DNA of 64,000 bases from Cytobacillus oceanisediminis 2691 (GTDB taxonomy: Bacteria > Bacillota > Bacilli > Bacillales > Cytobacillaceae), in assembly GCF_000294775.2 (NCBI RefSeq), contig NZ_CP015506.1, forward strand, positions 2,393,501-2,457,500. The letters run 5' to 3'. Position numbers and translations under genes: made by a program. Position 1 is the first letter of the stretch. Each line of letters starts with the position of its first letter. The notes beneath the pieces are model-generated. The model made no database searches, had not been told where the DNA came from, and saw only the letters and a list, made by a program, of their open reading frames with translations. Positions 37,520-51,743 of the stretch are shown here, piece after piece.

Positions 37520-38848
37520 TTGGAAAAGCTAAATCCTTGGAAAGTAGGGACTTTGGGATTTCAGCATGTGCTGGCCATGTATGCAGGTGCTGTTATTGTT
37601 CCACTGATTGTTGGACCGGCAATAGGGCTCACGGCCCAGCAGCTTGCTTACTTAATTTCAATTGATTTATTTACTTGCGGGATTGCTACATTGCTTCAAG
37701 TAATAGGGGGGAGGCATTTTGGCATAAGGCTGCCGGTGATTCTTGGATGTACTTTTACAGCAGTCGGACCCATGATTGCCATCGGGAATTTGCAGGGCAT
37801 TACAGCCATCTACGGGGCCATTATTGCTTCGGGAATCATCGTAATGATCTTATCTCAATTTATGAGTAAAATAATGAGATTTTTCCCGCCGGTCGTAACC
37901 GGTTCAGTGGTAGCTATTATCGGGGTTTCCTTGATCCCTGTTGCAATGAATAATGCTGCAGGAGGACTTGGTTCCCCAGAATATGGGAGTGCCCAGAATT
38001 TATTCCTGGCTGCATTTACACTCGTTCTCATTATTTTAATGAACAGGTTCTTTAAAGGCTATATGAGAGCTATATCTGTGCTGCTTTCATTGGTGGCCGG
38101 AACGATCACTGCTTATTTTATGGGGCTCGTCAGCTTTGCCGAAGTCAGCCAGGCTTCCTGGTTTCATGTCGTTCAGCCATTTTATTTCGGATTCCCGACA
38201 TTCAATGCCTCGGCCATACTTACAATGACTTTAGTAGCTATTGTGAGCATGATTGAATCTACTGGGGTATTTCTGGCCCTCGGAGATGTCTGCGAGAGAA
38301 AGCTGGACTCCAAAGACATAAAAAAAGGGCTGCGTGCAGAGGGGCTGGCTGTGGTAATAGGAGGAATCTTTAATGCATTTCCTTATACGTCCTTTTCACA
38401 GAATGTGGGACTTGTAGCGCTAACTAAAGTAAAAACGAGAAATGTAGTTATCGCAGCTGGCGTTATATTAATGATTTTGGGGCTTTTGCCTAAAGTGGCA
38501 GCTCTGACCACGATTATCCCTATGGCTGTTCTTGGCGGAGCAATGATTCCAATGTTTGGAATGGTTATCTCATCCGGAATCAGAATGCTTTCTGTTGTTG
38601 ATTTCAGCAAAAATGAAAACTTGCTTATCGTTGCCTGTTCCATAGGAATCGGACTTGGTTCGGCAGTTGTCCCGCAAATTTTTGAAAGTCTTCCAACAAG
38701 CGCACGCTTGCTGGTTGAAAATGGGATCGTGCTGGGAAGCATCACAGCAATTTTATTAAATTTGGTATTTAATTATAAAGATTTAAATATAAGTGAAAGT
38801 GAAAGAATCGAACAGCTGAAAGGAGATCATTCAGCTGAAGCGATTTAA
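37520..38848 (+). CDS. NCS2 xanthine/uracil-family permease (PbuX/PucK-like)
   Basis: A 442-residue transporter with about 14 membrane segments, starting at TTG 37520 behind GAGGGGAAG. Signatures: GFQHVLAMYAGAVIVPLIVG, LPVILGCTFTAVGPMIAIG, IESTGVFLALGDVCERKLD and AFPYTSFSQNVGLVALTKVK (the NCS2 signature). The ALTKVKTR ending and the Q in FSQN are typical of xanthine/urate carriers rather than uracil carriers. It is followed 71 bases later by the cyclic amidohydrolase, with only a small hairpin (38868-38889, no T-run), so it probably heads the microcompartment operon and supplies its substrate. Confidence 0.9.
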   Translation: MEKLNPWKVGTLGFQHVLAMYAGAVIVPLIVGPAIGLTAQQLAYLISIDLFTCGIATLLQVIGGRHFGIRLPVILGCTFTAVGPMIAIGNLQGITAIYGAIIASGIIVMILSQFMSKIMRFFPPVVTGSVVAIIGVSLIPVAMNNAAGGLGSPEYGSAQNLFLAAFTLVLIILMNRFFKGYMRAISVLLSLVAGTITAYFMGLVSFAEVSQASWFHVVQPFYFGFPTFNASAILTMTLVAIVSMIESTGVFLALGDVCERKLDSKDIKKGLRAEGLAVVIGGIFNAFPYTSFSQNVGLVALTKVKTRNVVIAAGVILMILGLLPKVAALTTIIPMAVLGGAMIPMFGMVISSGIRMLSVVDFSKNENLLIVACSIGIGLGSAVVPQIFESLPTSARLLVENGIVLGSITAILLNLVFNYKDLNISESERIEQLKGDHSAEAI

Positions 38849-38919
38849 ATGCAATTGCTGAAACCATCTGCCTCTTCTTCGGGAGGCAGAAATCCAAATA
38901 ATAGATAGGAGCAGGAGAA

Positions 38920-40380
38920 ATGGATTTAATTTTGAAAAATGCAAGCATTCCCCAGGGAGATCGTCAGGTTTTAACAAATATTCTGGTAAACGAGGGAAAA
39001 ATTGTTGGCTACACTAATGACATTTCTTTTCTAAATGCAGCCAGGGTAATTGATATTAAAGGAAAATTAGTCGTTCCAGGCTGTATTGATCCGCATACTC
39101 ATTTTATGGATCCAGGCTTCACTCATAGAGAAACCTTTGCTACTGGCAGCCGTTCTGCAGCAGCCGGAGGCTTAACAACCATTATAGATATGCCTTGCTG
39201 CAGCAAGCCATCCGTTCGTGATGGGGAGAGTTTCAATAAAAAAATCGGACCAATCAGGGATCAGGCCTATATTGATTACTGTTTCTGGGGAGGCATGACT
39301 GGAGAAGATGCTCGTGAAGGCTGGATTGATAATATTTATCCGCAGATTGACCAGGGAGTTGTTGCCTTTAAAGTTTACATGACTCCTTCTGTACCTACCT
39401 TCCCTAAAGTATCGGACGCAGAGATGCTGGAAATTTTCAGTAACGTTGCAAAAACCGGACTCCCAATTGGTGTACATGCTGAAAACTATGATATCTGCAC
39501 ATTCTATTCCAAAAAACTTGAAAAGGAAGGGCGCCTTGACGGACCAGCATGGGCGGAAGCGCGTTCAAGCCTCGCTGAGAAGGTGGCCATTGAATTGATT
39601 CTCAGCTTTGCAGAAGCTACAGACGCACGTGTACATGTGGTACATATGAGCACAAAAGAAGGCGTCGAGCTGGTAAAAGCAGCCAAGAAGCGTGGTGTTA
39701 AGGTTACAGCAGAAACCTGTCCTCACTATCTTGTACTTAATGCAAAGGACTCCATGTCAGAGCGCGGTTCCTATGCAAAGATTGCTCCTCCTTTACGAGG
39801 AAAAGAGGATAACGAATCTCACTGGCAGGCTCTGGCTGACGGAACCATCGATTTTGTCGGTACAGATCATGCTCCATATGAAATTGCCACAGAAAAGGAT
39901 TATCCTGGGGCAACGATCTGGAACACTTTCCCTGGCATACCCGGGGTAGAAACGATGGTGCCGATCCTTGTCAGTGAAGGTTTAAATAAAGGCCGTTTAT
40001 CCCTATCAAGATTTGTCGAGGTAACGAGCCGCAATGCCGCCATTCACTATGGCATTTACCCTAAAAAGGGATCAATGGAAATTGGCAGTGATGCTGATTT
40101 CACTGTTATTGATCTTGAGAAAGAATATGTAATAGACGAGCAAAAAACAGAATCAATGGCTAAATATAACCCTCTGCATGGCATGAAGCTTAAAGGAAAG
40201 CCAGTCCAAACGATCATTCGCGGAAACGTGATTTTCGATGAAGATAAAGGCATCGTAGGAGAAGCGGGCTATGGTGAGTATGTTCCGCGCCAAAGCATTC
40301 AGAGGCTTGAGAGAACATTCAAGTATGAAAAATACGAAGCGGTAAAAGCAAAAACAAAAGACCCAGTAGCACAGCAATAA
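38920..40380 (+). CDS. Cyclic amidohydrolase (allantoinase/hydantoinase/dihydroorotase family)
   Basis: A 486-residue binuclear metal amidohydrolase. Metal ligands are all present: H59 and H61 in GCIDPHTHFMDPG, the carboxylated lysine K151 in VVAFKVYMTP, H186 in IGVHAENYD, H242 in VHVVHMSTKEG, and catalytic D316 in FVGTDHAPYE. Such enzymes open cyclic amide rings of hydantoin, dihydropyrimidine, allantoin or dihydroorotate. It is the first enzyme of the BMC locus. From its context I infer that it opens the six-membered ring of xanthine to 4-ureido-5-imidazolecarboxylate; dihydropyrimidinase or allantoinase activity are the alternatives. It has a polar C-terminal tail of about 30 residues. Confidence 0.88.
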   Translation: MDLILKNASIPQGDRQVLTNILVNEGKIVGYTNDISFLNAARVIDIKGKLVVPGCIDPHTHFMDPGFTHRETFATGSRSAAAGGLTTIIDMPCCSKPSVRDGESFNKKIGPIRDQAYIDYCFWGGMTGEDAREGWIDNIYPQIDQGVVAFKVYMTPSVPTFPKVSDAEMLEIFSNVAKTGLPIGVHAENYDICTFYSKKLEKEGRLDGPAWAEARSSLAEKVAIELILSFAEATDARVHVVHMSTKEGVELVKAAKKRGVKVTAETCPHYLVLNAKDSMSERGSYAKIAPPLRGKEDNESHWQALADGTIDFVGTDHAPYEIATEKDYPGATIWNTFPGIPGVETMVPILVSEGLNKGRLSLSRFVEVTSRNAAIHYGIYPKKGSMEIGSDADFTVIDLEKEYVIDEQKTESMAKYNPLHGMKLKGKPVQTIIRGNVIFDEDKGIVGEAGYGEYVPRQSIQRLERTFKYEKYEAVKAKTKDPVAQQ

Positions 40381-40407
40381 ATAGTTAATAGAGGGAGGCT
40401 GACCGGA

Positions 40408-40998
40408 TTGGAACTTAGGGGAAAAAAGCACTGTGTGGTCATTATTGATATGTTAAACGACTTTATCGGCGAAAAAGCAGCATTAAGGTGTGAAAATGGC
40501 GAAAAAATAGTTCCCAAAATTCAAGAGCTTATTCAATTCGCTCATGAGCACAATATCCAGGTTGTGCATGTTCAGGAAGCACACAGAAAAAATGACCGGG
40601 ATTTTCGCGTGAGGCCTGTCCATGCAGTTAAGGGAACCTGGGGTTCGGAATTCATTCCAGAGCTTCAGCCTGATGAGAGCAAAGGGGATTATGTGGTTCA
40701 AAAGAGGCGGCATAGTGCGTTTAGCTACACCGATTTTGATCTCTTCTTGAGAGAAGAAGAAATTGATACCGTCGTGCTGACTGGAGTCTGGACCAATGTA
40801 TGTGTTCGCAGTACTGCTTCTGATGCTTTGTATCACGGCTACAATGTCATTTGCATTTCAGATGCCACCGCTTCTCAGGATGACGATATGCATGTATCAG
40901 GTTTAAGAGACATTGATATCTTCGGAGATATATTATCAACAGAAAATTACAAAATGCTTGCTAAAAAGAAATTCTCCCAAGACGAATCTGTTGTCTAA
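40408..40998 (+). CDS. Isochorismatase-like cysteine hydrolase
   Basis: A 196-residue protein starting at TTG 40408, nine bases after GAGGGAGG. The catalytic triad of the family is visible: D14 in CVVIIDMLNDF, K99 in VVQKRRHSAFSYT and C132 in VWTNVCVRSTASDA. The family includes nicotinamidase, N-carbamoylsarcosine amidase, ureidoacrylate and biuret hydrolases. Its place directly after the ring-opening enzyme suggests removal of a carbamoyl group (inferred: ureidoimidazole carboxylate to aminoimidazole carboxylate, CO2 and ammonia). Its stop overlaps the next start. Confidence 0.87.
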   Translation: MELRGKKHCVVIIDMLNDFIGEKAALRCENGEKIVPKIQELIQFAHEHNIQVVHVQEAHRKNDRDFRVRPVHAVKGTWGSEFIPELQPDESKGDYVVQKRRHSAFSYTDFDLFLREEEIDTVVLTGVWTNVCVRSTASDALYHGYNVICISDATASQDDDMHVSGLRDIDIFGDILSTENYKMLAKKKFSQDESVV

Positions 40999-41578
40999 CT
41001 CCTCGCTGGGGACTAGGAAAAAGCGGATTTTAGTGGGCATTACCGGAGCAAGCGGATCATTGTATGCTTATACATTGATCCGCGCTCTTCATCAATTAGA
41101 GATCGAAACGCATTTAATTGCTACGGAGATGGGAGAAAAAGTAATGCAATTTGAATGCGGGGTCAAGATGGACGAGCTGAAGGAGTATGCCACTATCCAC
41201 AGCAACCAAAATCTTTTCGCTGCGGTTGCCAGCGGATCCTTTAAGACAGACGGAATGGTTATCGTGCCATGTTCGATGAATACATTGGGAGCTATTGCGA
41301 ATGGGGTCGGTGATACGCTACTAAGCAGGGCTGCCAGTGTTGTCTTGAAGGAGAATCGAAAGTTCATTATTGTTCCTCGGGAAGCACCTTTTAATTTGAT
41401 TCATTTGCGCAATATGACTCTTCTTGCTGAGAGTGGAGCATGTATAATGCCTGCATCACCAGGCTTCTATCATAAGCCGACGGAAATATGGGAGCTGGCC
41501 AACTTTATGGTGGCAAGGATCTTGGACATGCTGGATATTGACCATGAGCTGCTGGAGAGATGGGGGGAAAAGGCATGA
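40991..41578 (+). CDS. ubiX: Flavin prenyltransferase UbiX
   Basis: About 195 residues: KKRILVGITGASGSLYAYTL (FMN-binding P-loop-like N-terminus), MVIVPCSMNTLGAIANGVGD, LSRAASVVLKENRKFIIVPR and EAPFNLIHLRNM. It makes the prenylated FMN cofactor required by UbiD decarboxylases. The start is uncertain; TTG 40991 overlaps the preceding stop by eight bases and gives the usual family length, while no ribosome binding site is obvious, which suggests translational coupling. Its gene overlaps ubiD (ATGA). Confidence 0.9.
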   Translation: MSNSSLGTRKKRILVGITGASGSLYAYTLIRALHQLEIETHLIATEMGEKVMQFECGVKMDELKEYATIHSNQNLFAAVASGSFKTDGMVIVPCSMNTLGAIANGVGDTLLSRAASVVLKENRKFIIVPREAPFNLIHLRNMTLLAESGACIMPASPGFYHKPTEIWELANFMVARILDMLDIDHELLERWGEKA

Positions 41579-42912
41579 ACCCTGTAACAATGAGGGCATT
41601 GCTGGATAGATGGGAAAGCATGGGACTTCTTCATCGGGTGAAAAAAGAAGTGGATCCGATGCACGAGCTGGGGGCAGTGATTAATGCCAAAAAAGGAAAA
41701 GAGCCTTTTTTATTTGAAAAAATTAAAGGCTATCAATCTTCCATGGCGGCCGGTTTGGGAGGTGACAGAGAGCTGATGGCTGACAGCATGGGAATCCAGT
41801 CTGCCGAACTTATTCCTAAAATCATCGATTCAATTGTTAACCCTATTCCAACCACGTTAAGGCAAACTGGCCCTGTTCAGGAGAATCTGGTGAGCGGGGA
41901 ATTCGATCTTGCAGACTTGTTTCCTATCCCAACCTATCACGCGGAAGACTCAGGTGCCTATTATGTTTCAGGAATATTGGTGGTTAAAGATTTATCGGGG
42001 AGAAAAAGGTATACCTCCATTCGCAGAATGCAATATCTTGGCGGGAATCGAACGAATATTCTCATAACCTCTCCAGAGCTGATGGAGCAATATGTCCATT
42101 ATGAAAGCATTGGCGAACCGATGGAAGTGGCTGTTATGTTTGGAGTGGTTCCAGCAGTTGTATTAAGTTCTCAGATTAGTACACATTTGTATCATACCGA
42201 CAAATTGGATGTTGCCGGTGCACTGCTCGGCCAATCCCTTGATGTTGTTCAATGCAAAACGGTCGATCTGGAAGTATTGGCTGAGGCGGAAATCGTTTTG
42301 GAAGGCAGAATGCTGCCATATGAAAGAGAACTGGAAGGACCGTTTGGCGAACTGGCAGGTTATTATGGCACCAGAACGCCTCAGCCGGTTGTAGAGTTTT
42401 CAGCCGTTACTTATCGTGATAATGCTATCTCACAGACTATTTTTCCATCAAGCTATGAAGAAAGGCTGCCGATGGCGCTTGTAAGGGAAGCTACGCTTTT
42501 AAGCACCGTCCGGCAAGTGGTTCCAAATATAAAAGCTGTACATATCTCGATGGGCGGGGTGGCTCGCTATCATGCAGTCATTCAAATTGAGAAGAAGCAT
42601 GATGGTGACGGCAAGCAGGCAGCACTTGCAGCTTTTGCAAGCGATAAGGATTTAAAGCATGTGGTTGTCGTGAATGATGATGTCGATATTTTTGATTCAG
42701 ATGATGTTGAATGGGCCATTGCGACAAGAGTCCAGGCTGGTGATGACATATTTATCGTTCAGGGTGCAAAGGGATCGCCGCTCGAGTCTTCCCATCATCT
42801 AAAAGGAGTCAGTGATAAGATGGGCATCGACGCAACCTATCCTCTTGGAAAAGAAGAGTTATTTAAAAGGACTTCAATCCCCATTGAAGTGAATCTCGAA
42901 GACTATCTTTAA
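41575..42912 (+). CDS. UbiD-family prFMN-dependent decarboxylase
   Basis: A 445-residue (de)carboxylase. Visible UbiD features: IPTYHAEDSGAYYVSGILV, RRMQYLGGNRTNILI, EGRMLPYERELEGPFGELAG (the ExxxE catalytic region), SSYEERLPMALVREA and AVHISMGGVARYHAVIQI. The start ATG 41575 overlaps the ubiX stop (ATGA), with GGGGGGAAA upstream. UbiD enzymes remove carboxyl groups from aromatic or heteroaromatic rings, including pyrrole- and furan-carboxylates. I propose 4-amino-5-imidazolecarboxylate as substrate here. A UbiD enzyme inside a BMC shell locus is unusual. Confidence 0.9.
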   Translation: MNPVTMRALLDRWESMGLLHRVKKEVDPMHELGAVINAKKGKEPFLFEKIKGYQSSMAAGLGGDRELMADSMGIQSAELIPKIIDSIVNPIPTTLRQTGPVQENLVSGEFDLADLFPIPTYHAEDSGAYYVSGILVVKDLSGRKRYTSIRRMQYLGGNRTNILITSPELMEQYVHYESIGEPMEVAVMFGVVPAVVLSSQISTHLYHTDKLDVAGALLGQSLDVVQCKTVDLEVLAEAEIVLEGRMLPYERELEGPFGELAGYYGTRTPQPVVEFSAVTYRDNAISQTIFPSSYEERLPMALVREATLLSTVRQVVPNIKAVHISMGGVARYHAVIQIEKKHDGDGKQAALAAFASDKDLKHVVVVNDDVDIFDSDDVEWAIATRVQAGDDIFIVQGAKGSPLESSHHLKGVSDKMGIDATYPLGKEELFKRTSIPIEVNLEDYL

Positions 42913-42937
42913 GCTTCTGCAGTAGAGGAGGTCAAAA

Positions 42938-43201
42938 ATGAAGGCAATAGGCTTGATTGAAACTAGGGGGTTGACAGCGGCTATTGAAGCGCTGGACTCA
43001 ATGGCAAAAGCGGCAAATGTCAGTTTAGTTGATTTAAAGAGAGTCGGATCCGGCCTTGTCACCGTCATTATTGAGGGCGATGTCGCAGCAGTGTCTGCAG
43101 CTGTTGAGGTTGGGAAGACTGCACACACCATGACAGGAGGAGAACTGGTTTCGGCTAATGTTATTCCCCGCCCTCATTCAGAACTTCGCAAAATTCTTTA
43201 A
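42938..43201 (+). CDS. BMC-H shell protein
   Basis: An 87-residue single-domain BMC protein: MKAIGLIETRGLTAAIEALD, then LKRVGSGLVTVIIEGDVAAV and [13 protein letters not shown]. It has the canonical pore-loop GSG between strands. Such proteins form flat hexamers that tile microcompartment facets. TAGAGGAGG precedes the ATG, and it lies 25 bases after ubiD in the same operon. Confidence 0.95.
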   Translation: MKAIGLIETRGLTAAIEALDSMAKAANVSLVDLKRVGSGLVTVIIEGDVAAVSAAVEVGKTAHTMTGGELVSANVIPRPHSELRKIL

Positions 43202-43217
43202 AGGAGGTGCATAATGT

Positions 43218-44177
43218 GTGTCTGACTTTATTAAAAGTGTTGTAGAAGAAGTGATGAAGCCTTACGGCAAGTCAAAAGTAAATCCTATTAATGGGGTTTC
43301 CAACCAGTCCCCCCCAAGCAGGCAGCAGGGAACGAAGAAGAATATACCGGGCATTACCCGGCCTAATTACCAGAAGGAAAAAATGAATAAAAGAATATCA
43401 GTTCATCATTCAGTACCGGTCAAGACTGCAGAGCCACATCAAAACCTTAAAAGGCAACCAGTTTCTCATTCTGCACCCAAGTCTTCAGCTAAGGAAAAAA
43501 TTGCACAGCTTCAAACCCTATCCCTGGTACAGGGGAAACATCCGGTTTCTTCCAATGCTGGCTTTGCTGATATAAAACCTGACCGTAATGCAAGAGAAAG
43601 CCAGCTTATCGGACAAACGCCGGAGGGTGTAAAAGTCTGGCTGTTCTCAGAGCTTCATCCAGCTCTTGAAAGCTCTTTTCAGCGGGAATTAAAAACAGCC
43701 TCAATCGGTGTAGTCATTTCAGAAAAATGCACGCCAGGGCAGTTATTTATGCTGAATGACCTTTTAAGAGAGTTTCCTTCTTTAAGATATTGCCTGACAT
43801 GGGACAAAAACAGCGGGAAATCTTTTTCGCTGGAGCTATATGAAGAGAATCATGGGATACTATTAAACGCCTTAAAGAGCTTCTTTAAAAAACTTTCCCA
43901 AAAATCCTTTAAAACTACTCAAATCTATAGAGAAAAATCCCCCAGTCCATGGCTTACTAAACAATTGGGGCTGAACTCTTCAATCGGCGGTGTGGCTGTC
44001 ATTGAAGGGATCGACTATTATTCGGGTATTTTGATCCTTGACCGTTACATGAAAAAAAGCACTTCTGAACATTTCAATTTTTTAATAGAGAAGAAATACT
44101 TGCTGCTTCATGGACACTATGATGATGTTTCACGCATCTCTGATCAGCTTCATAAGGAATTCGACAGAATTAATTAG
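43218..44177 (+). CDS. Adapter-like BMC protein with N-terminal encapsulation-type helix
   Basis: 319 residues, starting at GTG 43218, eight bases after AAGGAGGTG; the ATG at 43214 is followed by a stop, so GTG is decisive. The first 18 residues (MSDFIKSVVEEVMKPYGK) form an amphipathic helix like the peptides that target cargo to shells. Residues 20-120 are low-complexity, rich in P, S, Q, K and H (linker). The C-terminal 190 residues form a compact domain (VKVWLFSELHPALESSFQRE, SIGVVISEKCTPGQLFML, GGVAVIEGIDYYSGILIL) that I do not recognise. It sits among the shell genes. Inferred role: scaffold or linker between shell and enzymes. Confidence 0.8.
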   Translation: MSDFIKSVVEEVMKPYGKSKVNPINGVSNQSPPSRQQGTKKNIPGITRPNYQKEKMNKRISVHHSVPVKTAEPHQNLKRQPVSHSAPKSSAKEKIAQLQTLSLVQGKHPVSSNAGFADIKPDRNARESQLIGQTPEGVKVWLFSELHPALESSFQRELKTASIGVVISEKCTPGQLFMLNDLLREFPSLRYCLTWDKNSGKSFSLELYEENHGILLNALKSFFKKLSQKSFKTTQIYREKSPSPWLTKQLGLNSSIGGVAVIEGIDYYSGILILDRYMKKSTSEHFNFLIEKKYLLLHGHYDDVSRISDQLHKEFDRIN

Positions 44178-44282
44178 TTGTAAGCCAGCATCTCTGTCAC
44201 AGATCAGAAACTATTCATCCCGGAAGCATCTTATAGGCATGGAGAGATGATTTGTCTATTTCATAGGAGGGGGATTTACCAG

Positions 44283-44696
44283 TTGCAAGCATTGGGACTG
44301 ATTGAAACCGTTGGTTATTCAACAGCAGTTTCTGCAGCAGATGCAGCCGTAAAAGCAGCAGATGTAGAAATTGTAGGAATTGAAAAAGTAATAGGAGTGG
44401 AGAGCTATCTGGGGGTTACAATCCATTTTAACGGGGATGTAGCGGCAGTGAAGTCTGCTGTCGATGCTGGTGTTAGTGCTGCAGAAAGAATTGGAAAAGT
44501 AATTTCTGCTCATGTCATCCCGCGTGCCCACAGTGAAGTAGCAGGGAAGCTGCTTCCGAATTTTAAGCTGGAAGATATGCATCCTGGAAATGATGCTCAA
44601 GGGGGTAACAGACTAGAGGTTAACCCGAATAGAAAAAAGCAAGCAAAAGAGAGCAGCAACTTTAATGTTAACGATACAGACAAATCATCAGGTTAA
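44283..44696 (+). CDS. BMC-H shell protein with expanded pore loop and polar tail
   Basis: 137 residues from TTG 44283 ([20 protein letters not shown]), ten bases after AGGAGGGGG; a longer frame from ATG 44247 overlaps this site. The BMC fold is clear ([54 protein letters not shown]). The pore loop IGVESYLG is about four residues longer than the usual GSG/GFG type. After the domain come about 45 polar residues ([13 protein letters not shown]), probably disordered. The tail may bind cargo or face the lumen. Confidence 0.9.
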
Positions 44697-45006: not shown

Positions 45007-45738
45007 ATGAGCAGCAAAAAGCAGAGTGTTATGGCAAAAAACACTCTGCAGGAGCTTTACCTGCGAAATGACAGCTGCAGAGACAGAAAACCTCACATCC
45101 TGGCTCTATTAACCTCTCATATGATAGGGATGGAACCAGGATTTTCTTACTTGAAAAAGTTAACAAAGAAAGATATTACACTCAGAATGGCTGCTGAGGA
45201 GGAAATGCTAAAACAATTTCCGCTTCAGGAGTTAGTTAATCTGACTGGAAATGACGATTGGATCTCTCCGACAGCGTTTCATGCCCAGCCAATTGATCAA
45301 TTCGATGAGATCTTTTTGCCTATTCTATCCTTTTCTTTAATAACAGACATACTGTCCCTTAACGAAAAGAGACCAATTGTGCAGATCATCCTAAAGGGCT
45401 TATTGAAGGGAAAACGGATCACGGCTTTAAAGGCTGGAGGTGATCCCTTCAGCCAATATTGGAAACTGAAAGGAATGGATAAAGGCCCCGACATGTTAAA
45501 AAGGAAGCTCAATGAGCAGATGACAGAACTGAAGATGCTTGGAATCAGATTAATAGATTTCCATCAACAAGCAGAATTTGATGTTCAGCATGTGAAGAAA
45601 ACGGTTATTACCGATGAATCAGTCCGGTTTGCCCGTTTTAGTAAGCTTGATCAAATAGCTGTTCCAAAAGGGGCTATCATTACCCCCCTTGCAAGAGATA
45701 CAGCAAAGGAACTGAAGATCGAAATCATTCTACATTAA
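45007..45738 (+). CDS. BMC-associated protein of unknown function
   Basis: 243 residues, starting two bases after the preceding stop. The N-terminus (MSSKKQSVMAKNTLQELYLR) is basic and helical. The middle is mixed alpha/beta with LTSHMIGMEPGFSYLKKLTK, ISPTAFHAQPIDQFDEIFLP and KRITALKAGGDPFSQYW, resembling flavoprotein-like or EutQ/PduO-neighbour proteins of other BMC loci. The C-terminus IAVPKGAIITPLARDTAKEL is a motif recurring in BMC-associated enzymes (PKGxxxTPxAxDxAxExxI). I do not recognise the enzyme. Confidence 0.75.
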   Translation: MSSKKQSVMAKNTLQELYLRNDSCRDRKPHILALLTSHMIGMEPGFSYLKKLTKKDITLRMAAEEEMLKQFPLQELVNLTGNDDWISPTAFHAQPIDQFDEIFLPILSFSLITDILSLNEKRPIVQIILKGLLKGKRITALKAGGDPFSQYWKLKGMDKGPDMLKRKLNEQMTELKMLGIRLIDFHQQAEFDVQHVKKTVITDESVRFARFSKLDQIAVPKGAIITPLARDTAKELKIEIILH

Positions 45739-45751: not shown

Positions 45752-46027
45752 ATGCAAATGGGAATAGTGGTTGGTCGTGTAACTGCCACAAGAAAAGATG
45801 ATAATCTTGTGGGCACAAAATTATTAATTACCCAGCCTGTAGGATTGGACGGCACGCTGTTACCGAACCCCATTATAACCGTTGATACTGTTGGTGCCGG
45901 AATAGGAGAGAAGGTCATATATGTGACTGGAAGCATGGCATCAAGAGCCGTCCAAAATAAAGATGCTCCTATAGATGCGGCCATTATCGGAATTATTGAC
46001 AGTGTAGAAGGGGAGACAGGGGGTTAA
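45752..46027 (+). CDS. BMC-P vertex protein (EutN/CcmL family)
   Basis: 91 residues: MQMGIVVGRVTATRKDDNLV, then KLLITQPVGLDGTLLPNPII, DTVGAGIGEKVIYVTGSMAS and PIDAAIIGIIDSVE. This is the pentameric EutN/CcmL fold that caps the vertices of icosahedral shells. Only one such gene is present, enough for a closed shell. AAGGAGAAGG precedes the ATG. The gene is followed three bases later by the deaminase paralogue. Confidence 0.95.
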   Translation: MQMGIVVGRVTATRKDDNLVGTKLLITQPVGLDGTLLPNPIITVDTVGAGIGEKVIYVTGSMASRAVQNKDAPIDAAIIGIIDSVEGETGG

Positions 46028-46030
46028 TAA

Positions 46031-47842
46031 ATGGATGCAATAGACATAAAAAAGGCAGTGCAATACCGCAAGCTTATTGACGTGCTGCTTGATTCCAGCC
46101 AGTTTGCTGATGTAGTCCTGAAAGGAGGATACTTCATCAATGTCATCACCCGGGAGATCTATGAAGCAGACGTTGCGATGAAAGGTGAATATATTTTAAT
46201 GGCGGGAGATGCAAAAGACTTAATCGGGCCAAAAACGAAAGTGGAAAACATTCAGGGGAAATTCGTATGTCCCGGGTTTATTGATTCTCATATGCATTTT
46301 GAAAGTGCAATGCTGACTTGCACGGAATTCTCCAAGCTTTCCATTCCGACTGGGACCACCACGCTGATTGGAGATCCGCATGAAATTGGAAATGTCCTGG
46401 GGGTTCACGGGATGCAGGCGATGATTGAAGAAGCAAAGACACTTCCAAACCGGATCCTTTTCACGGTTCCCTGCGCGGTGCCTGATGCTCCCGGACTTGA
46501 AACCTCCGGATTTGATGTGACTTCCAAGGATATGAAAGAGCTATTGGCTGACCCAAATGTACAGGGAATTGGAGAGATACAGAGCTTCAGCAATATCAGG
46601 CCGGTATATGAGCATGCCCCGGAATTAATAGACGACCTTGTTGCCGCAGTTTCGTATGCAAACAGCATAGGAAAAACGGTTGAAGGGAATGCACCAGGAT
46701 TGTTTGGCAAAGAGCTTGCCGCCCATATTATCAGTGGCGGGAACCATGTGTCCTGCCATGAGACTACGACAAAAGAAGAAACTGTCGAAAAGCTGCGCAA
46801 TGGTGTAAGTGTGTTCATGCGTGAAGGCTCTTCCCAAAGAAATATGGCAGACTGTATCCGTGCCATAACAGAGGATGGGCTCGATTCCCGCCGTGCAATC
46901 CTTGTATCAGATGATATGGTGCCTGCTGATCTGTTAAATTACGGACATATGAATGATATTGTCCGCAGAACTATTGCTGTAGGCATTGATCCTGTGGAGG
47001 CCATCCAAATGGCGACCATAAATCCGGCTTCCCATTTTGGCTTTAAAGATGTTGGGGTAATTGCACCAGGCAAACGGGCAGACGTTGTCGTGATCAGCGA
47101 CCTGAACAATATGACCGTTGACCAGGTATATCTTGCAGGAAAAAAAGCAGCTGAAAAAGGCGAATTAACCATAGATATTGCTCCTTACATATATCCGGAA
47201 AGTGTGAAAAAGTCAGTGAGGAGAAAACCTGTAACACTCAAGGAGCTGGCTATTGAGGCTTCAGGCAGCCGAGCAAAAGTAAGGGCAATTGAAGCTATAC
47301 CTTTTCAGAACTTAACTGGCGGAAGCGAGTTCACTCTGAATGTCAAAGACGGCATTGTGCTGCCTTGCCTTAAGCAGGATGTGCTGCCGCTTCTGGTTGT
47401 AGAACGCCACGGCAGAACAGGAAAAATCGGTAAGACTTTCCTGCATGGCTTCGATTTGAAAAGCGGTGCCATTGCAGAAAGCGTCGCCCATGATACACAC
47501 AATATCATCGTAACAGGGACAAACTACGAAGATATGGTAACTGCGGTGAACCGTGTAATTGCAATGGATGGCGGAATAGCGATGATAAAGGATAGCAAAG
47601 TAGTCGGTGACCTGCCATTGAGGATTGGCGGTTTAATGACAGACGAATTAACTGGAAAAGAAATGAGTGAAAAGGTAGACGAATTGTCGCAGCTTGCAAA
47701 AGATGTTCTTGGCTGTGGCATGGAGGTTCCGTTTATGCATTTATCATTCTGGTCACTGGTAACAAGCCCTAAGTGGAAAATTACAGATATGGGACTGATC
47801 GATGTAGATAAATTTGAGGTCATTCCGACCATTATTAATTGA
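46031..47842 (+). CDS. Diverged adenine-deaminase paralogue in the BMC operon
   Basis: 603 residues of the adenine deaminase family: FIDSHMHFESAML (H87, H89), IGDPHEIGNVLG, ILVSDDMVPAD and the C-terminal domain LPLLVVERHGRTGKIGKTFL, AESVAHDTHNIIVTGTN. It differs from the true AdeC (27851) at key places. The metal-binding His of DGHAxGL is Asn220 here (EGNAPGL), and the EVMDYP motif is replaced by EIQSFS. Such changes suggest another substrate. I propose deamination of 4-aminoimidazole, half of the adenine ring system, to 4-imidazolone. Adenine deamination is the default alternative. Four bases after the BMC-P gene; no encapsulation peptide is obvious. Confidence 0.88.
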   Translation: MDAIDIKKAVQYRKLIDVLLDSSQFADVVLKGGYFINVITREIYEADVAMKGEYILMAGDAKDLIGPKTKVENIQGKFVCPGFIDSHMHFESAMLTCTEFSKLSIPTGTTTLIGDPHEIGNVLGVHGMQAMIEEAKTLPNRILFTVPCAVPDAPGLETSGFDVTSKDMKELLADPNVQGIGEIQSFSNIRPVYEHAPELIDDLVAAVSYANSIGKTVEGNAPGLFGKELAAHIISGGNHVSCHETTTKEETVEKLRNGVSVFMREGSSQRNMADCIRAITEDGLDSRRAILVSDDMVPADLLNYGHMNDIVRRTIAVGIDPVEAIQMATINPASHFGFKDVGVIAPGKRADVVVISDLNNMTVDQVYLAGKKAAEKGELTIDIAPYIYPESVKKSVRRKPVTLKELAIEASGSRAKVRAIEAIPFQNLTGGSEFTLNVKDGIVLPCLKQDVLPLLVVERHGRTGKIGKTFLHGFDLKSGAIAESVAHDTHNIIVTGTNYEDMVTAVNRVIAMDGGIAMIKDSKVVGDLPLRIGGLMTDELTGKEMSEKVDELSQLAKDVLGCGMEVPFMHLSFWSLVTSPKWKITDMGLIDVDKFEVIPTIIN

Positions 47843-47846
47843 ACTT

Positions 47847-47871
47847 AAAAGCGGCGTTCTCTGCCGCTTTT
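47847..47871. terminator. Hairpin within the BMC operon, possible partial terminator
   Basis: AAAAGCGGC (47847-47855), loop GTTCTCT, GCCGCTTTT (47863-47871). It lies between the deaminase paralogue and the cyclase gene. The T-run is only four, so it may attenuate rather than end transcription, dividing the operon into shell-proximal and distal parts. Confidence 0.65.
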
Positions 47872-47909
47872 CATATAGTAAAAAAATTAGCAGGGCAAGG
47901 AGGAATAGC

Positions 47910-48593
47910 ATGGGAGTTAAATTAGTCGATTTAACGCAGGAAATTTATCAGGGAATGCCTGTTTTTCCCCTTCATCAAAAAACAATGATCTTCCCAAATA
48001 TCTCTCACGAAGAAAGTGAAAAGCAAGTGGGATTTATGTTTGCAACCAATAATCTATTAATCAATGAACATGGCCCTACCCATAGCGATGCAACCTATGA
48101 ATATGATCCAAACGGCAAATACATCGATGAAATGCCGCTTGAATATTTTTACGGGCCCGCAGTTTGCCTGGATGTGTCCCACATCCAGCCTGATCGATAT
48201 ATTACAGACCGTGATCTCGAGGAGGCATTGCGAAAATCACAGCAGTTTATTGAAAAAGGAGATATCGTTCTCCTCTATACCGGCCACTATAATCGCTCTT
48301 ATGGTACAGACAAATGGCTCACAACCTACACGGGCCTGAATTATCAAGCAGCCAAATGGCTGGCTGAAAAAGGTGCGGTCAATATAGGCATCGATGCCCC
48401 GGCCATTGACCATCCGGATGATCCGAAGTATTCCGGGCACCTCATTTGCCGGGAATATGGGATAACCAATACGGAAAATCTCTGTAATCTCGATCAGATT
48501 GCAGGAATGCGATTTCTATATTTCGGACTGCCGCTCAAGATTCGAAAAGGAACGGGATCTCCAGTTCGTGCTGTAGCCGTTTTCATTGAATAA
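47910..48593 (+). CDS. Cyclase-family metal hydrolase (kynurenine formamidase-like)
   Basis: 227 residues from ATG 47910 (MGVKLVDLTQEIYQGMPVFP), with AAGGAGG before it. The family metal motif appears as NEHGPTHSDATYEYDP (canonical HxGTHxDxP with changes), and the ending GIDAPAIDHPDD and FLYFGLPLKIRKGTGSPVRA is typical. Members hydrolyse amides such as N-formylkynurenine or cyclic amides. In the proposed pathway it could open 4-imidazolone to formiminoglycine. It could also be the deformylase. Function by sequence alone is uncertain. Confidence 0.82.
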   Translation: MGVKLVDLTQEIYQGMPVFPLHQKTMIFPNISHEESEKQVGFMFATNNLLINEHGPTHSDATYEYDPNGKYIDEMPLEYFYGPAVCLDVSHIQPDRYITDRDLEEALRKSQQFIEKGDIVLLYTGHYNRSYGTDKWLTTYTGLNYQAAKWLAEKGAVNIGIDAPAIDHPDDPKYSGHLICREYGITNTENLCNLDQIAGMRFLYFGLPLKIRKGTGSPVRAVAVFIE

Positions 48594-48613
48594 CAACAAA
48601 GGTTGGTGATCAA

Positions 48614-49237
48614 ATGAAAGAGGTTTTTAACAAGGGGAAGATCAGAGACGAAATGATTATCCCCCCTTATGAAGGAAGAAGCGCCCTGATTCACAAAGGA
48701 GAAGAGCTCATAATTATTGATATGGAAGGAAAACAAGTGGGGGATTTTGTCTGTTTTAACTATAAAGATCCTGAGGAACATGTTTCACCTGTTCATATGC
48801 GTGCCTCATTAAGCAGCATTCGGCTTAAAACGGGAGATTGGCTTTACAGCAACCGCCGCCGCCCGCTGATGCAGCTAGTGGAAGACACTGTTGGAAAACA
48901 TGATTTCTTCTTTCCTGCTTGTGATTATTACCGCTATAAAGTTGATTTTGGCAAGGAGGATCACCCAAATTGCCATGATAATATTGCGGCTGCTTTGAAA
49001 AAGTATGATATTCACCCCCCTGTCATTCCGGATCCCATCAATATATTTATGAATAATGTCCTTGATGATGCTGGTGATTATGTCATTACCGAGCCTCTTT
49101 CCAAGCCTGGTGATTACATAAGGCTGAAAGCATTGTGCGATGTTGTCATTGCCTGTACAACCTGTTCCCAGGACATGGCACCGGTTAATGGGTTTAAAGT
49201 GACCCCTATTAAAATGCAAATAGTGGAGGCGGATTAA
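48614..49237 (+). CDS. DUF1989 protein (urea-carboxylase-associated type)
   Basis: 207 residues: AALIHKGEELII-like region (SALIHKGEELIIIDMEGKQV), DFVCFNYKDPEEHVSPVHMR, SNRRRPLMQLVEDTVGKHDF, DHPNCHDNIAAAL and IACTTCSQDMAPVNG. Conserved Cys and His residues suggest metal binding. DUF1989 proteins accompany urea carboxylase and guanidine degradation and include carboxyguanidine deiminases. In this locus a deiminase acting on a formimino or amidine group (formiminoglycine) would fit. The stop overlaps the next start by one base. Confidence 0.82.
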   Translation: MKEVFNKGKIRDEMIIPPYEGRSALIHKGEELIIIDMEGKQVGDFVCFNYKDPEEHVSPVHMRASLSSIRLKTGDWLYSNRRRPLMQLVEDTVGKHDFFFPACDYYRYKVDFGKEDHPNCHDNIAAALKKYDIHPPVIPDPINIFMNNVLDDAGDYVITEPLSKPGDYIRLKALCDVVIACTTCSQDMAPVNGFKVTPIKMQIVEAD

Positions 49238-50409
49238 TGAATGACATTCAGTTTCTTCAGCAGCTGCTTCAAATCGACAGCTCTAATCCGCCAGGAAACG
49301 AACATTTAGTGACTGAAGCTTTTATTAACAGATGCAAACAAAATTGTCTGCCGTTTAAAGTGACAATACTTGATGAGACTCGAAGCAATTTTGAAGTTAC
49401 GCTTCCGGGAAAAAGCGGTAAACAGCTAGTCTTATGCGGCCATATGGATACCGTTTCTCCTGGAACGGGAGAATGGATTTACTCTCCATTTTCAGGTGAA
49501 ATCGCAGATGGACGCATATATGGCAGAGGAGCATCTGATATGAAAAGCGGTCTTGCAGCGATGTTCCTGGCATTGGAAGAGCTGTATCTCACGAGTACTG
49601 TACCCCCTGCTGGCGTTACTTTTTTGGCAACAGCCGGGGAGGAAGTCGACAGCTGCGGGGCAAGGGCTTTTATAAAGGAGAATGACTGCAGAAAAATAGA
49701 TGCACTAATCATTGCCGAACCGACAAATGAAAAAATTGTGATTGGCCATAAGGGAGCTCTTTGGCTTGAAATAACAGCGTATGGAAAAACCTCTCACGGT
49801 TCGATGCCGGAACAGGGAATAAATGCAGTAGATCATATGCTTAAAATAGTCCGGCTATTGGATGAAATGAAAATTGGATGGATGACAGATAGGAAGCCAC
49901 TCGGACAAAGCAGCCTGGCTGTTACCATGATTGAAGGCGGAGTGCAAACCAATGTCATTCCAGATAAATGCAGCATCAGAGCAGATATAAGAACCGTCCC
50001 TCCTCAATCCCATTCCAGTTTTATAAACATGCTGAAATCCAAACTTGATCTGCTGATGGATCAGGAAGAGATTTATAAATACAGTGTTGAAACCATCCTG
50101 GACCGTCCATCTATTTTAACGGATCCTGCTGAGGACATTATTCAAATAGCGCAAATGATCAAAGGCGAATCGCCAGCAAACCATTACGGGGTGTCCTACT
50201 ATACAGATGGTGCCGTTCTTAATCCAAGGAGTGAGATTCCTACCCTGATTTACGGCCCGGGAGACGAAAAGCTTGCCCATCAGCCAAATGAGTGGGTGAG
50301 TCTGGCGGCTTATCAGCGCTCCATTCAATTTTACAAGCAGCTTATCATGACATATGGAAAACTGGAGCCAGGAGAAGCAAGTCCTGTACAAGGGGGAGGA
50401 AGAAGTTGA
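49237..50409 (+). CDS. M20-family metal-dependent hydrolase
   Basis: 390 residues of the ArgE/DapE/carboxypeptidase G2 type. Zinc ligands: H in LVLCGHMDTVSPG, D in GRGASDMKSGLAAM, E-E in ATAGEEVDSCGA and a further acidic site in IAEPTNEKIVIGHKG. The lid/dimerisation domain lies between residues 180 and 290 (SHGSMPEQGINAVDHMLKIV). It hydrolyses an acyl-amino or carbamoyl-amino bond; a known relative (YlmB) is a deformylase, so N-formylglycine to glycine plus formate is a possible role here. Overlaps both neighbours by one to four bases, implying tight coupling. Confidence 0.88.
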   Translation: MNDIQFLQQLLQIDSSNPPGNEHLVTEAFINRCKQNCLPFKVTILDETRSNFEVTLPGKSGKQLVLCGHMDTVSPGTGEWIYSPFSGEIADGRIYGRGASDMKSGLAAMFLALEELYLTSTVPPAGVTFLATAGEEVDSCGARAFIKENDCRKIDALIIAEPTNEKIVIGHKGALWLEITAYGKTSHGSMPEQGINAVDHMLKIVRLLDEMKIGWMTDRKPLGQSSLAVTMIEGGVQTNVIPDKCSIRADIRTVPPQSHSSFINMLKSKLDLLMDQEEIYKYSVETILDRPSILTDPAEDIIQIAQMIKGESPANHYGVSYYTDGAVLNPRSEIPTLIYGPGDEKLAHQPNEWVSLAAYQRSIQFYKQLIMTYGKLEPGEASPVQGGGRS

Positions 50410-51743
50410 GCAGTATACTGATAAAAAATGCTGAAATCATCACGATGAACGCAGCTGAAGAAATCGTTTTCGGCGACCTTTATATTGTGGATGACCGCAT
50501 CGTGGAAATTGGCCAGAATTTAACACATAAAGCTGATAAAGTAATGGATGCTTCAGGAAAAACAATCATACCGGGATTTATCCAGACACATATACATCTA
50601 TGCCAGACATTATTCCGAGGACAGGCTGATGATCTTGAACTGCTTGATTGGCTGAAACAGAAAATCTGGCCGCTGGAGGCTTCGCATGATGAAGAATCCA
50701 TCTATTATTCTGCCATGCTGGGGATTGGTGAATTGCTTCAAAGCGGAACAACAACTGTGGTGGACATGGAAACGGTCAATCATACCGAATATGCATTTCA
50801 GGCAATTGCCGAGAGCGGCATACGGGCACTTGCCGGAAAGGTCATGATGGATAAGGGGGATGAAGTTCCAGTTCCGTTAAGGGAAAATACCTTAAAGTCC
50901 ATCCAGCAAAGCGCAGATCTGCTTGAGAAATGGCATAACAGCGATAATGGACGAATACAATATGCCTTCTGTCCCCGTTTTGTAGTTTCCTGCACAGAGG
51001 AATTGCTGAAAAGTGTCAGGGATCTTTCTGCACAGTACAATGTAAGAGTCCATACGCACGCATCGGAAAATGCCAATGAAATTCTGCTTGTTGAAAGAGA
51101 ATTAGGCATGCGGAATGTAGTTTACTTGGACAGCATTGGGCTTGCCAATGAAAGGCTGATTCTTGCGCATTGTGTTTGGCTTGATGAAGAAGAAAAAAGG
51201 ATCATCAAAGAGCGTGGTGTAAAGGTCAGCCATTGTCCGGGATCCAATTTAAAGCTGGCATCAGGTGTAGCAGAAATTCCTTCTTTATTGGATCAGCAGG
51301 CTTTTGTCAGCCTGGGTGCTGATGGTGCTCCCTGCAATAACAATCTGGATATGTTCAATGAAATGAGATTGGCTGCAATCATTCAGAAGCCTGTACATGG
51401 ACCAACAGCAATGAATGCCAGAACAGTCTTCAGAATGGCTACGATCGGCGGAGCTAAAGCAGTTGGAATGGAAAAGGAAATCGGAAGCCTTGAGCCCGGA
51501 AAGAAAGCAGACCTTGCTATTCTTAATCTGAATGATTTTCATGTGTATCCGTCATTTGATATCGACACCATCTCGAGGATTGTCTATTCAGCCACTCGAG
51601 CAGATGTAGAAATAACCATTGTAAACGGGAAAATCGTCATGGAAAATAGGAAGCTAAAAACGGTTGATAAAGAAATGGTGTTAAGAGAAGCGAACATCAG
51701 CATAAAGAGGCTGCTTAAAAGATTAGAGACAGCCGTTTATTAA
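50406..51743 (+). CDS. Amidohydrolase, HutF/guanine-deaminase/SAH-deaminase-like
   Basis: 445 residues from TTG 50406, overlapping the previous stop (TTGA). Mononuclear metal motif: H62 and H64 in GFIQTHIHLCQTLFRG, then VRVHTHASENANE, LILAHCVWLDEEE and SLGADGAPCNNNLDMFNEM (catalytic Asp). This family contains guanine, 8-oxoguanine and S-adenosylhomocysteine deaminases and formiminoglutamate deiminase HutF. Two roles fit the island: producing xanthine from guanine, or deiminating formiminoglycine. An upstream frame extending to 50292 is an overlap with the M20 gene and is not used. A terminator follows, closing the operon. Confidence 0.88.
   Translation: MSSILIKNAEIITMNAAEEIVFGDLYIVDDRIVEIGQNLTHKADKVMDASGKTIIPGFIQTHIHLCQTLFRGQADDLELLDWLKQKIWPLEASHDEESIYYSAMLGIGELLQSGTTTVVDMETVNHTEYAFQAIAESGIRALAGKVMMDKGDEVPVPLRENTLKSIQQSADLLEKWHNSDNGRIQYAFCPRFVVSCTEELLKSVRDLSAQYNVRVHTHASENANEILLVERELGMRNVVYLDSIGLANERLILAHCVWLDEEEKRIIKERGVKVSHCPGSNLKLASGVAEIPSLLDQQAFVSLGADGAPCNNNLDMFNEMRLAAIIQKPVHGPTAMNARTVFRMATIGGAKAVGMEKEIGSLEPGKKADLAILNLNDFHVYPSFDIDTISRIVYSATRADVEITIVNGKIVMENRKLKTVDKEMVLREANISIKRLLKRLETAVY

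What the first reader, a model, noticed from the sequence alone, without database searches (positions are those of the whole stretch)
37520..51743. A bacterial microcompartment whose enzymes follow the xanthine-to-glycine pathway
The locus combines a full minimal shell (three BMC-H, one BMC-P) with hydrolases and a decarboxylase but no aldehyde or alcohol dehydrogenase and no phosphotransacylase. The order is purine permease, cyclic amidohydrolase, isochorismatase-like hydrolase, UbiX/UbiD, shell genes, adenine-deaminase-like, cyclase-like, DUF1989, M20, HutF-like. It mirrors the clostridial sequence xanthine, 4-ureido-5-imidazolecarboxylate, 4-amino-5-imidazolecarboxylate, 4-aminoimidazole, 4-imidazolone, formiminoglycine, glycine plus formate. 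An adjacent divergent operon makes xanthine from adenine and hypoxanthine. Sequestration could retain unstable 4-aminoimidazole. BMC loci with amidohydrolases have been catalogued, and one type may be linked to xanthine; I cannot check whether this one is described.
Basis: partly seen in the sequence, partly recalled or inferred. Interest (0 to 1): 0.95.

Follow-up and report, generated by a model that had tools for sequence, protein, structure and literature searches.

The report
Xanthine-degrading microcompartment with folate-free ending
This operon encodes shell proteins and enzymes of an already catalogued kind of bacterial organelle (BUF1/Xau) that is predicted to break xanthine down to glycine, and here two hydrolases likely do the final step for which relatives in clostridia carry a folate-type transferase.

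Summary
The operon is real and its gene content matches BUF1/Xau, a microcompartment type catalogued in 2014 and predicted in 2019 to degrade xanthine. A 2025 paper credits Tong 2023 with finding the xanthinase gene cluster in Clostridia and Bacilli. So the core idea is not new. Three things are added here.

(1) The Bacilli loci, this one included, lack the formiminotransferase (FTCD) of clostridial genomes and carry DUF1989 plus, usually, an M20 hydrolase. Of 63 genomes, 46 have DUF1989, 14 have FTCD, none has both and 3 have neither. One Neobacillus, nested among DUF1989 loci, has FTCD plus a cyclodeaminase-like gene in the same operon instead. DUF1989 as formiminoglycine deiminase and M20 as N-formylglycine deformylase is the best reading; it is untested.

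(2) The 319-aa protein without a Pfam match is predicted to be a hidden trimeric shell protein (BMC-T) with a targeting-like N-terminal helix and an invariant RPNYQ motif.

(3) A purine riboswitch leads the divergent xdh operon. In some relatives, glycine-catabolic genes, glycine riboswitches or formate dehydrogenase sit beside the locus, supporting glycine and formate as products.

Correction: the last gene is not HutF-like but a 5'-deoxyadenosine-deaminase-type enzyme.

The parts
27851..29587 (-). adenine deaminase (true Ade type), last gene of the divergent xdh operon
   Evidence: TIGR01178 682 bits over cut-off 472.5; Pfam
29627..30994 (-). second purine-type permease (Xan_ur_permease)
   Evidence: Pfam 162 bits; no NCBIfam match at E 0.001
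31085..36473 (-). xanthine dehydrogenase operon: XdhC pieces, large subunit 32220-34520, FAD subunit 34505-35395, MocA-like 35397-35981, 2Fe-2S subunit 35985-36473
   Evidence: Pfam
36653..36750 (-). purine riboswitch aptamer in the leader of the xdh operon
   Evidence: RF00167 66.5 bits, gathering score 37
36915..37265 (+). MpsC-domain protein, first small gene before the permease; conserved in many Bacilli loci, role unknown
   Evidence: Pfam MpsC 28 bits; synteny
37520..38848 (+). xanthine permease PbuX
   Evidence: TIGR03173 563 bits, cut-off 414
38920..40380 (+). cyclic amidohydrolase, likely xanthine amidohydrolase (xanthinase), step 1
   Evidence: Pfam Amidohydro_1; nearest solved structures L-hydantoinase 1gkr and allantoinase 3hm7; the HxH, K, H, H, D columns (metal ligands as recalled) are invariant in 10 rows
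40408..40998 (+). isochorismatase-fold hydrolase, likely ureidoimidazolecarboxylate amidohydrolase, step 2
   Evidence: Pfam; next to 38920 gene in 54 of 56 loci; Asp, Lys and Cys (catalytic positions as recalled) invariant in 54 of 54
40991..41578 (+). UbiX flavin prenyltransferase (makes prFMN); TTG start overlapping the gene before
   Evidence: NF004685 224 bits, cut-off 188; start codon scan
41560..42912 (+). UbiD-family prFMN decarboxylase, likely 4-amino-5-imidazolecarboxylate decarboxylase, step 3
   Evidence: TIGR00148 311 bits, cut-off 245; nearest solved protein 6h6v 407 bits, next different protein 165; Arg and two Glu (catalytic triad as recalled) 53 of 53
42938..43201 (+). BMC-H shell protein
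   Evidence: PF00936 95 bits
43218..44177 (+). hidden BMC-T shell protein (predicted) with N-terminal targeting-like helix, invariant RPNYQ motif and disordered linker
44247..44696 (+). BMC-H shell protein with C-terminal tail
   Evidence: PF00936 84 bits
44720..45004 (+). BMC-H shell protein, the most conserved of the three
   Evidence: PF00936 104 bits; identities
45007..45738 (+). UbiX-like flavoprotein-fold protein (predicted), microcompartment-associated
45752..46027 (+). BMC-P shell pentamer protein
   Evidence: PF03319 100 bits
46031..47842 (+). adenine-deaminase-like, likely 4-aminoimidazole deaminase, step 4
   Evidence: TIGR01178 473.2 bits against cut-off 472.5, versus 682 for the Ade at 27851
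47910..48593 (+). cyclase-family hydrolase, likely 4-imidazolone amidohydrolase, step 5
   Evidence: PF04199; nearest solved: kynurenine formamidase, isatin hydrolase; within 400 bases of DUF1989 in 42 of 43 loci
48614..49237 (+). DUF1989 hydrolase, likely formiminoglycine deiminase, step 6
   Evidence: PF09347 181 bits; metal site C103, C120, C184, H117, D187, D44 conserved in 98-100% of 43 relatives; FTCD exclusion
49237..50409 (+). M20 ArgE/DapE-type hydrolase, likely N-formylglycine deformylase, step 7; start overlaps DUF1989 stop (TAATG)
   Evidence: TIGR01910 254 bits, cut-off 218; His, Asp, Asp, Glu, Glu and Glu of the M20 motifs 33 of 33, the last motif 14-19 of 33 because several loci end before it; adjacent to DUF1989 in 37 of 43 loci
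50406..51743 (+). 5'-deoxyadenosine-deaminase-type amidohydrolase, likely a purine deaminase feeding the pathway; not HutF
   Evidence: PRK07228 733 bits, cut-off 522; HutF 90 bits, cut-off 413; purine riboswitch directly before its relatives in L018, L020 and L034

Best explanation
The operon encodes the shell and enzymes of a BUF1/Xau-type microcompartment that is predicted to degrade xanthine to glycine by hydrolyses and one prFMN-dependent decarboxylation, and in these Bacilli the last stretch, formiminoglycine to glycine, is likely done without folate by a DUF1989 deiminase and an M20 deformylase. Inferred route: xanthine -> 4-ureido-5-imidazolecarboxylate (38920) -> 4-amino-5-imidazolecarboxylate + NH3 + CO2 (40408) -> 4-aminoimidazole + CO2 (UbiD 41560, with prFMN from UbiX) -> 4-imidazolone + NH3 (46031) -> formiminoglycine (47910) -> N-formylglycine + NH3 (DUF1989 48614) -> glycine + formate (M20 49237). 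PbuX would import xanthine; the divergent XDH/adenine-deaminase operon, behind a purine riboswitch, would supply it from adenine and hypoxanthine. The shell, including a hidden BMC-T whose N-terminal helix and RPNYQ motif may bind the enzyme core, would keep unstable 4-aminoimidazole at the enzymes. Shown: gene content, conservation of active-site residues, the exclusion pattern and one operon-level swap, riboswitch matches. Predicted: the BMC-T fold, backed by sequence links. Inferred: every substrate, and which enzymes lie inside.
For: Shell plus enzyme set conserved in order across Bacilli. FTCD and DUF1989 exclude each other: 50 genomes give FTCD 9, DUF1989 39, both 0, neither 2; 13 further genomes give DUF1989 7, FTCD 5, both 0, neither 1. 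Neobacillus notoginsengisoli (L020/L070), sister to a DUF1989+M20 locus with SH-aLRT 100, has FTCD and FchA-like genes in the same operon and no DUF1989. DUF1989 metal ligands intact (sites from PMC12560246); the family includes carboxyguanidine deiminase (PMC11271267; PMC11410670). M20 start overlaps the DUF1989 stop, M20 is adjacent in 37 of 43 loci, and in G198 it sits with isochorismatase, BMC-H and BMC-P genes. Glycine genes lie in the flanks of 8 of 35 DUF1989 genomes, with glyA, sda and gcv genes in a row behind a glycine riboswitch in L041. Formate dehydrogenase follows M20 in L105 and lies near it in L175, there behind a tandem glycine riboswitch. Purine riboswitches in 12 of 15 Bacilli sources plus the window, before XDH in 10 of the 15 and before the last-gene relative in 3.
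Against: No enzyme here was assayed. Five Fictibacillus loci have DUF1989 but no M20 beside it; four of these genomes hold only 32-34% M20 paralogues and one none at E 1e-40, so another deformylase or another DUF1989 reaction is needed there. f19 genomes have only an unlinked 45-47% M20 relative. The FTCD/DUF1989 split mostly follows Clostridia versus Bacilli: the tree needs only 2 changes, so there is one clean independent switch. Most FTCD-positive clostridial genomes have two or three FTCD genes, some perhaps for histidine. Three genomes have neither gene: G045 (1.5 Mb MAG), G048 (xanthinase piece only) and G606, which is rated 99% complete; G606 shows only a cyclase fragment at contig ends. 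The window itself has no glycine genes beside the operon, and 27 of the 35 flanked genomes have none either. Both Neobacillus genes score below their NCBIfam cut-offs (FtcD 219.8 against 221.25; FchA 202.5 against 275), though PF07837 is over its own.
Confidence: 0.7

Rival explanations
1. Same organelle, but DUF1989 splits formiminoglycine directly into glycine and formamide (as formiminoglutamase does), and M20 does something else or is only helpful.
For: Fictibacillus loci manage with DUF1989 and no close M20; in G198 a nitrilase-family gene lies divergently next to DUF1989 (best hits far below cut-offs).
Against: M20 overlaps DUF1989 and is adjacent in 37 of 43 loci; ArgE/DapE enzymes cleave N-acyl amino acids and the known DUF1989 deiminase releases ammonia (established knowledge); formate dehydrogenase beside or near M20 in two lineages, although formate could also come from formamide.
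Confidence: 0.18
2. Ravcheev 2019 assignment: the cyclase-family gene opens xanthine and the dihydropyrimidinase-like gene opens 4-imidazolone, with a folate transferase at the end.
For: Published prediction (PMC6620236, passages); mapping of Amet_4587 to the cyclase and Amet_4584 to the amidohydrolase is my inference from gene order in L043/L044.
Against: The amidohydrolase pairs with the isochorismatase (54 of 56) and the pair occurs apart from the rest in G678/G606 and in f19, while the cyclase sits by the finishing gene: DUF1989 in 42 of 43 loci, FTCD in L043, L044, G678 and G568. Not everywhere: in L046 and L057 no FTCD lies beside the cyclase, and in G493 they are about 7 kb apart. No FTCD in any of the 46 DUF1989 genomes.
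Confidence: 0.06
3. The compartment acts on hydantoins or dihydropyrimidines rather than xanthine.
For: Nearest solved relatives of 38920 are L-hydantoinase, allantoinase and D-hydantoinases.
Against: PbuX over its cut-off, XDH operon with purine riboswitch, purine riboswitches in relatives, and a UbiD and an adenine-deaminase-like enzyme, for which I recall no role in hydantoin or pyrimidine breakdown.
Confidence: 0.04

Closest known systems
BUF (BUF1) locus type, Axen 2014 (PMC4207490, passages) and Sutter 2021 (PMC8217296, passages)
   Same: [quoted passage not shown] amidohydrolases, deaminase, carboxy-lyase, isochorismatase
   Different: No formiminotransferase here; DUF1989 and M20 instead; BMC-T too diverged for Pfam
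Xau xanthine-utilisation microcompartment, Ravcheev 2019 (PMC6620236, passages)
   Same: Predicted anaerobic xanthine degradation; XDH genes; says Bacillus fordii and Bacillus sp. 2_A_57_CT2 lack the transferase in the cluster; the B. fordii (Siminovitchia fordii) locus L025 matches the window's core order
   Different: Ring-opening enzymes assigned the other way round (inferred mapping); the passages I read give no substitute for the missing transferase in Bacillus
Xanthinase pathway, Tong 2023 Cell Chem Biol (not held; seen only as cited in PMC12507026 passages, and PMC11688493 passages; abstract recalled)
   Same: Per PMC12507026: xanthinase, then hydrolytic and decarboxylative steps to glycine, gene cluster in Clostridia and Bacilli; recalled: four hydrolases and a prFMN decarboxylase
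   Different: Whether it treats the Bacilli ending, DUF1989 or M20 could not be checked
HutF-HutG type histidine ending (recalled): formiminoglutamate to formylglutamate to glutamate plus formate
   Same: Same chemical logic: deimination then deformylation, no folate
   Different: Different protein families; substrate here would be formiminoglycine
Carboxyguanidine deiminase CgdAB (DUF1989), as cited in PMC11271267 and PMC11410670 (passages)
   Same: DUF1989 hydrolase acting on an amidine-like carbon
   Different: Window protein scores 121 and 77 bits against UAAP models with cut-offs 285 and 206; one DUF1989 gene in G000, not a pair
PduB/EtuB BMC-T shell proteins
   Same: Predicted tandem BMC fold
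   Different: 9-12% identity, no Pfam BMC match among those listed for 37 members; RPNYQ motif

Membership tests
BUF1/Xau microcompartment | Shell set BMC-H, BMC-P and BMC-T without aldehyde dehydrogenase | tested here: met
   Pfam; BMC-T by predicted fold and sequence chain
BUF1/Xau microcompartment | Conserved enzyme core: cyclic amidohydrolase, isochorismatase, UbiX/UbiD, adenine-deaminase-like, cyclase | tested here: met
BUF1/Xau microcompartment | Xanthine dehydrogenase genes in the genome, often adjacent | tested here: met
BUF1/Xau microcompartment | Formiminotransferase XauG (variable: Ravcheev's own text says two Bacillus members lack it in the cluster, so not treated as defining) | tested here: not met
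   PF07837 0 matches in G000; Ravcheev passage
BUF1/Xau microcompartment | Enzymes act on xanthine inside a shell | not testable with these tools
   needs assays and electron microscopy
   90 bits; PRK07228 733 bits, cut-off 522
Carboxyguanidine deiminase / UAAP (CgdA, CgdB) | Score over curated cut-offs 284.7 or 205.95 | tested here: not met
   121.3 and 77.2 bits
DUF1989 metal-dependent hydrolases | Pfam match and zinc Cys triad | tested here: met
   PF09347 181 bits; C103 and C120 in 100%, C184 in 98% of 43 relatives
BMC-T shell proteins (43218 gene) | Two tandem BMC domains | tested here: met
   [not shown]
Encapsulation peptide | Short amphipathic terminal helix joined by a linker | tested here: inconclusive
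   43218 N-terminal helix 3-12 at low confidence, hydrophobic moment 0.60, the highest N-terminal value of 15 proteins, but C-terminal values of several are higher; no binding test

The most novel reading that the evidence does not exclude
In Bacilli the Xau organelle is a complete, folate-free purine mill: seven reactions, none needing a diffusible cofactor, turn xanthine into glycine, formate, three ammonia and two CO2 behind one protein shell. DUF1989 is a formiminoglycine deiminase, M20 an N-formylglycine deformylase, and a tethered BMC-T (N-terminal helix, RPNYQ motif) binds the enzyme core to the shell. Because no step depends on tetrahydrofolate, the whole route, not only its middle, could be enclosed, unlike the clostridial version.
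Probability: 0.37. Interest if true: 0.78.

Novelty: new variant of a known kind. Interest (0 to 1): 0.6.

Why it matters
Microcompartments are read as either carbon-fixing or aldehyde-processing; BUF1/Xau is the proposed third kind (PMC4207490, PMC6620236, passages). The Bacilli variant makes a clean, testable statement about two enzyme families (DUF1989, M20) in purine breakdown, and one Neobacillus operon appears to swap it for a folate route. Hydrolytic xanthine degradation is also of practical interest for clearing purines in hyperuricemia (PMC11688493, passages). A hidden BMC-T with a conserved linear motif offers a handle on how such organelles may bind their enzymes.

Tried and rejected
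HutF role for the last gene: rejected on cut-offs. Minimal shell of BMC-H and BMC-P only: rejected after fold search and a relative with two Pfam BMC stretches. Encapsulation peptides on the enzymes: a hydrophobic-moment scan of both termini did not single out any enzyme, so which enzymes are inside stays open. Using FTCD absence alone as proof: not accepted, since the split mostly follows Clostridia versus Bacilli; the Neobacillus switch carries the weight. Dropped before counting: G490 and G775 (E about 1e-143 to 1e-145), as probable hydantoinase-type paralogues; L055 (31% identity) was also treated as a paralogue. Thirteen of the genomes count as new; G422, G213, G404, G637 and G678 were taken as repeats of G036, G034, G035, G049 and G040 from equal contig numbers and coordinates. 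Literature: nine searches listed no paper that, by title, abstract or the passages I opened, gives DUF1989 or M20 a part in this pathway; one search listed only 15 of 1,007 papers. Tong 2023 and Schneider 2020 are not held, so this is not proof that it is unpublished. Families missing from the fold lists are not excluded.

Full report
What is there. The operon at 37520-51743 is confirmed. The divergent operon 27851-36473 holds adenine deaminase, a permease, XdhC pieces and xanthine dehydrogenase subunits. A purine riboswitch of 66.5 bits lies in its leader at 36653-36750.

Prior art. The locus type is BUF of Axen 2014 (passages), listed as BUF1 by Sutter 2021 (passages), predicted to be a xanthine compartment Xau by Ravcheev 2019 (passages), and repeated as such in PMC8156839 and PMC11346464 (passages). 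PMC12507026 (passages) says that the xanthinase gene cluster was identified by Tong 2023 in Clostridia and Bacilli, with a xanthinase kcat of 0.1 per second. I could not read Tong 2023; from memory its abstract names four hydrolases of different families and a prFMN-dependent decarboxylase. The core of the finding is therefore known or predicted.

Relatives. A scan of GTDB genomes with the 38920 protein gave 57 loci. Gene order is nearly fixed in Bacilli: xanthinase, isochorismatase, UbiX, UbiD, BMC-H, 319-aa protein, BMC-H, BMC-H, 243-aa protein, BMC-P, Ade-like, cyclase, DUF1989, M20; the deaminase follows where the stretch reaches it, though not in every genome. Clostridial loci lack DUF1989 and M20, and the cyclase, where seen, is divergent; in L043 and L044 a formiminotransferase (FTCD) lies beside it, in L046 and L057 it does not.

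The exclusion. FTCD_N (PF07837) and DUF1989 (PF09347) were sought in 50 whole genomes, the own genome plus 49 of the 57 loci: FTCD 9 of 50, DUF1989 39 of 50, both 0, neither 2. Wider sampling found xanthinase relatives in 11 of 398 class genomes and 12 of 398 phylum genomes, the own genome included in each; two of the latter were dropped as paralogues. After removing repeats, 13 new genomes remained: 7 of 7 Bacilli with DUF1989 and no FTCD, 5 of 6 others with FTCD and no DUF1989, and one (G606, rated 99% complete) with neither. Total: DUF1989 46, FTCD 14, both 0, neither 3 of 63. Most clostridial genomes have two or three FTCD genes, so not every copy need serve this pathway. In Neobacillus notoginsengisoli the operon runs cyclase, deaminase, FTCD (219.8 bits, cut-off 221.25), FchA-like (202.5 bits, cut-off 275), with no DUF1989 in the genome. 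Its four core enzymes are sister to those of N. mesonae, which has DUF1989 and M20 (SH-aLRT 100). This one independent switch is the best evidence that DUF1989, with M20, does the job of FTCD. The tree needs just one more change, so 63 genomes are not 63 independent events.

Chemistry fit. The gap from formiminoglycine to glycine without folate needs loss of an imino nitrogen and of a formyl group. DUF1989 proteins include carboxyguanidine deiminase (PMC11271267, PMC11410670; passages). The residues named for the metal sites of TMAO demethylase in PMC12560246 (passages) are C103, C120, C184, H117, D187 and D44 here and are conserved in 98-100% of 43 relatives. M20 is ArgE/DapE type with its motifs conserved, and its start codon overlaps the DUF1989 stop. 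M20 is adjacent to DUF1989 in 37 of 43 loci; L012 is cut off and five Fictibacillus loci lack it. G198 has an M20 of 57% identity beside isochorismatase, BMC-H and BMC-P genes about 12 kb from its xanthinase; f19 genomes have an unlinked 45-47% relative. Four Fictibacillus genomes hold only 32-34% paralogues and one none at E 1e-40: unexplained.

Product side. In 8 of the 35 DUF1989 genomes whose further flanks I fetched, glycine-catabolic genes lie beside the locus: the Siminovitchia group (four genomes), Virgibacillus alimentarius, one of two f27 genomes, Paludifilum and Thermoflavimicrobium daqui, the last two in upstream flanks. In T. daqui glyA, sdaAB, sdaAA, gcvT, gcvH and gcvP genes stand in a row behind a glycine riboswitch. 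Formate dehydrogenase follows M20 in Evansella vedderi and lies near it in G198 behind a tandem glycine riboswitch; both have TGA at the same place in the frame, which from memory is where such enzymes carry selenocysteine. Purine riboswitches were found in 12 of 15 Bacilli sources and 0 of 5 other sources; ten of the 15 have one before XDH and three before the last-gene relative.

Order of steps. The xanthinase candidate and the isochorismatase are neighbours in 54 of 56 loci and occur as a pair away from the shell genes in G678, G606 and f19. The cyclase sits by the gene that would finish the pathway: DUF1989 in 42 of 43 loci, FTCD in L043, L044, G678 and G568, but not in L046, L057 or G493. 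UbiD is by far closest to 6h6v (407 bits against 165 for the next protein), which I recall as HmfF, an enzyme of five-membered heteroaromatic acids. The 46031 protein just reaches the adenine deaminase cut-off (473.2 against 472.5) while the window also holds a clear adenine deaminase at 27851 (682), which fits a changed substrate.

Verdict. A known kind of organelle in a Bacilli variant. Well supported: membership, xanthine, glycine. Likely: the DUF1989 and M20 ending. Untested: all activities, and which enzymes are enclosed.

Noticed in passing
window 36653-36750 (-) and L007, L010, L015, L016, L024, L053, L175: In purine riboswitches before the xdh operon the nucleotide before the conserved specificity C (position 73 by recalled xpt numbering) varies (A, U, G, C), whereas the four of eight other aptamers of the same genome that my pattern could read all have A. 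Possibly a changed ligand.
   Followed up: partly
L105:2251-4311 and L175 about 12525-14580: Formate dehydrogenase genes beside or near the Xau M20 gene carry an in-frame TGA at the same place, probably a selenocysteine codon, in Bacilli.
   Followed up: partly
window 7763-9166 (+): A SelA (L-seryl-tRNA selenium transferase) gene lies in the same window.
   Followed up: no
own genome G000:C1:2713831-2722974: A second group of five BMC-domain matches about 275 kb away, so this genome has another set of shell genes.
   Followed up: no
L152-L155 (G678, G606): Xanthinase-isochorismatase pairs, two of them with a UbiD gene, without shell genes in the fetched stretch: a possible shell-free, nitrogen-scavenging short version.
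   Followed up: partly
L132-L135, L149-L151 (f19 genomes): The xanthinase-isochorismatase pair is some 10 kb from, and opposite to, the shell and Ade-cyclase-DUF1989 cluster.
   Followed up: no
L156-L158, e.g. L157:11008-11814: An MreB/FtsA/Hsp70-like ATPase-fold protein sits in the shell cluster of f106 genomes (Pfam run on the L157 copy only).
   Followed up: no
window 36915-37265 (+): A small MpsC-domain protein precedes the operon in many Bacilli loci; role unknown.
   Followed up: no
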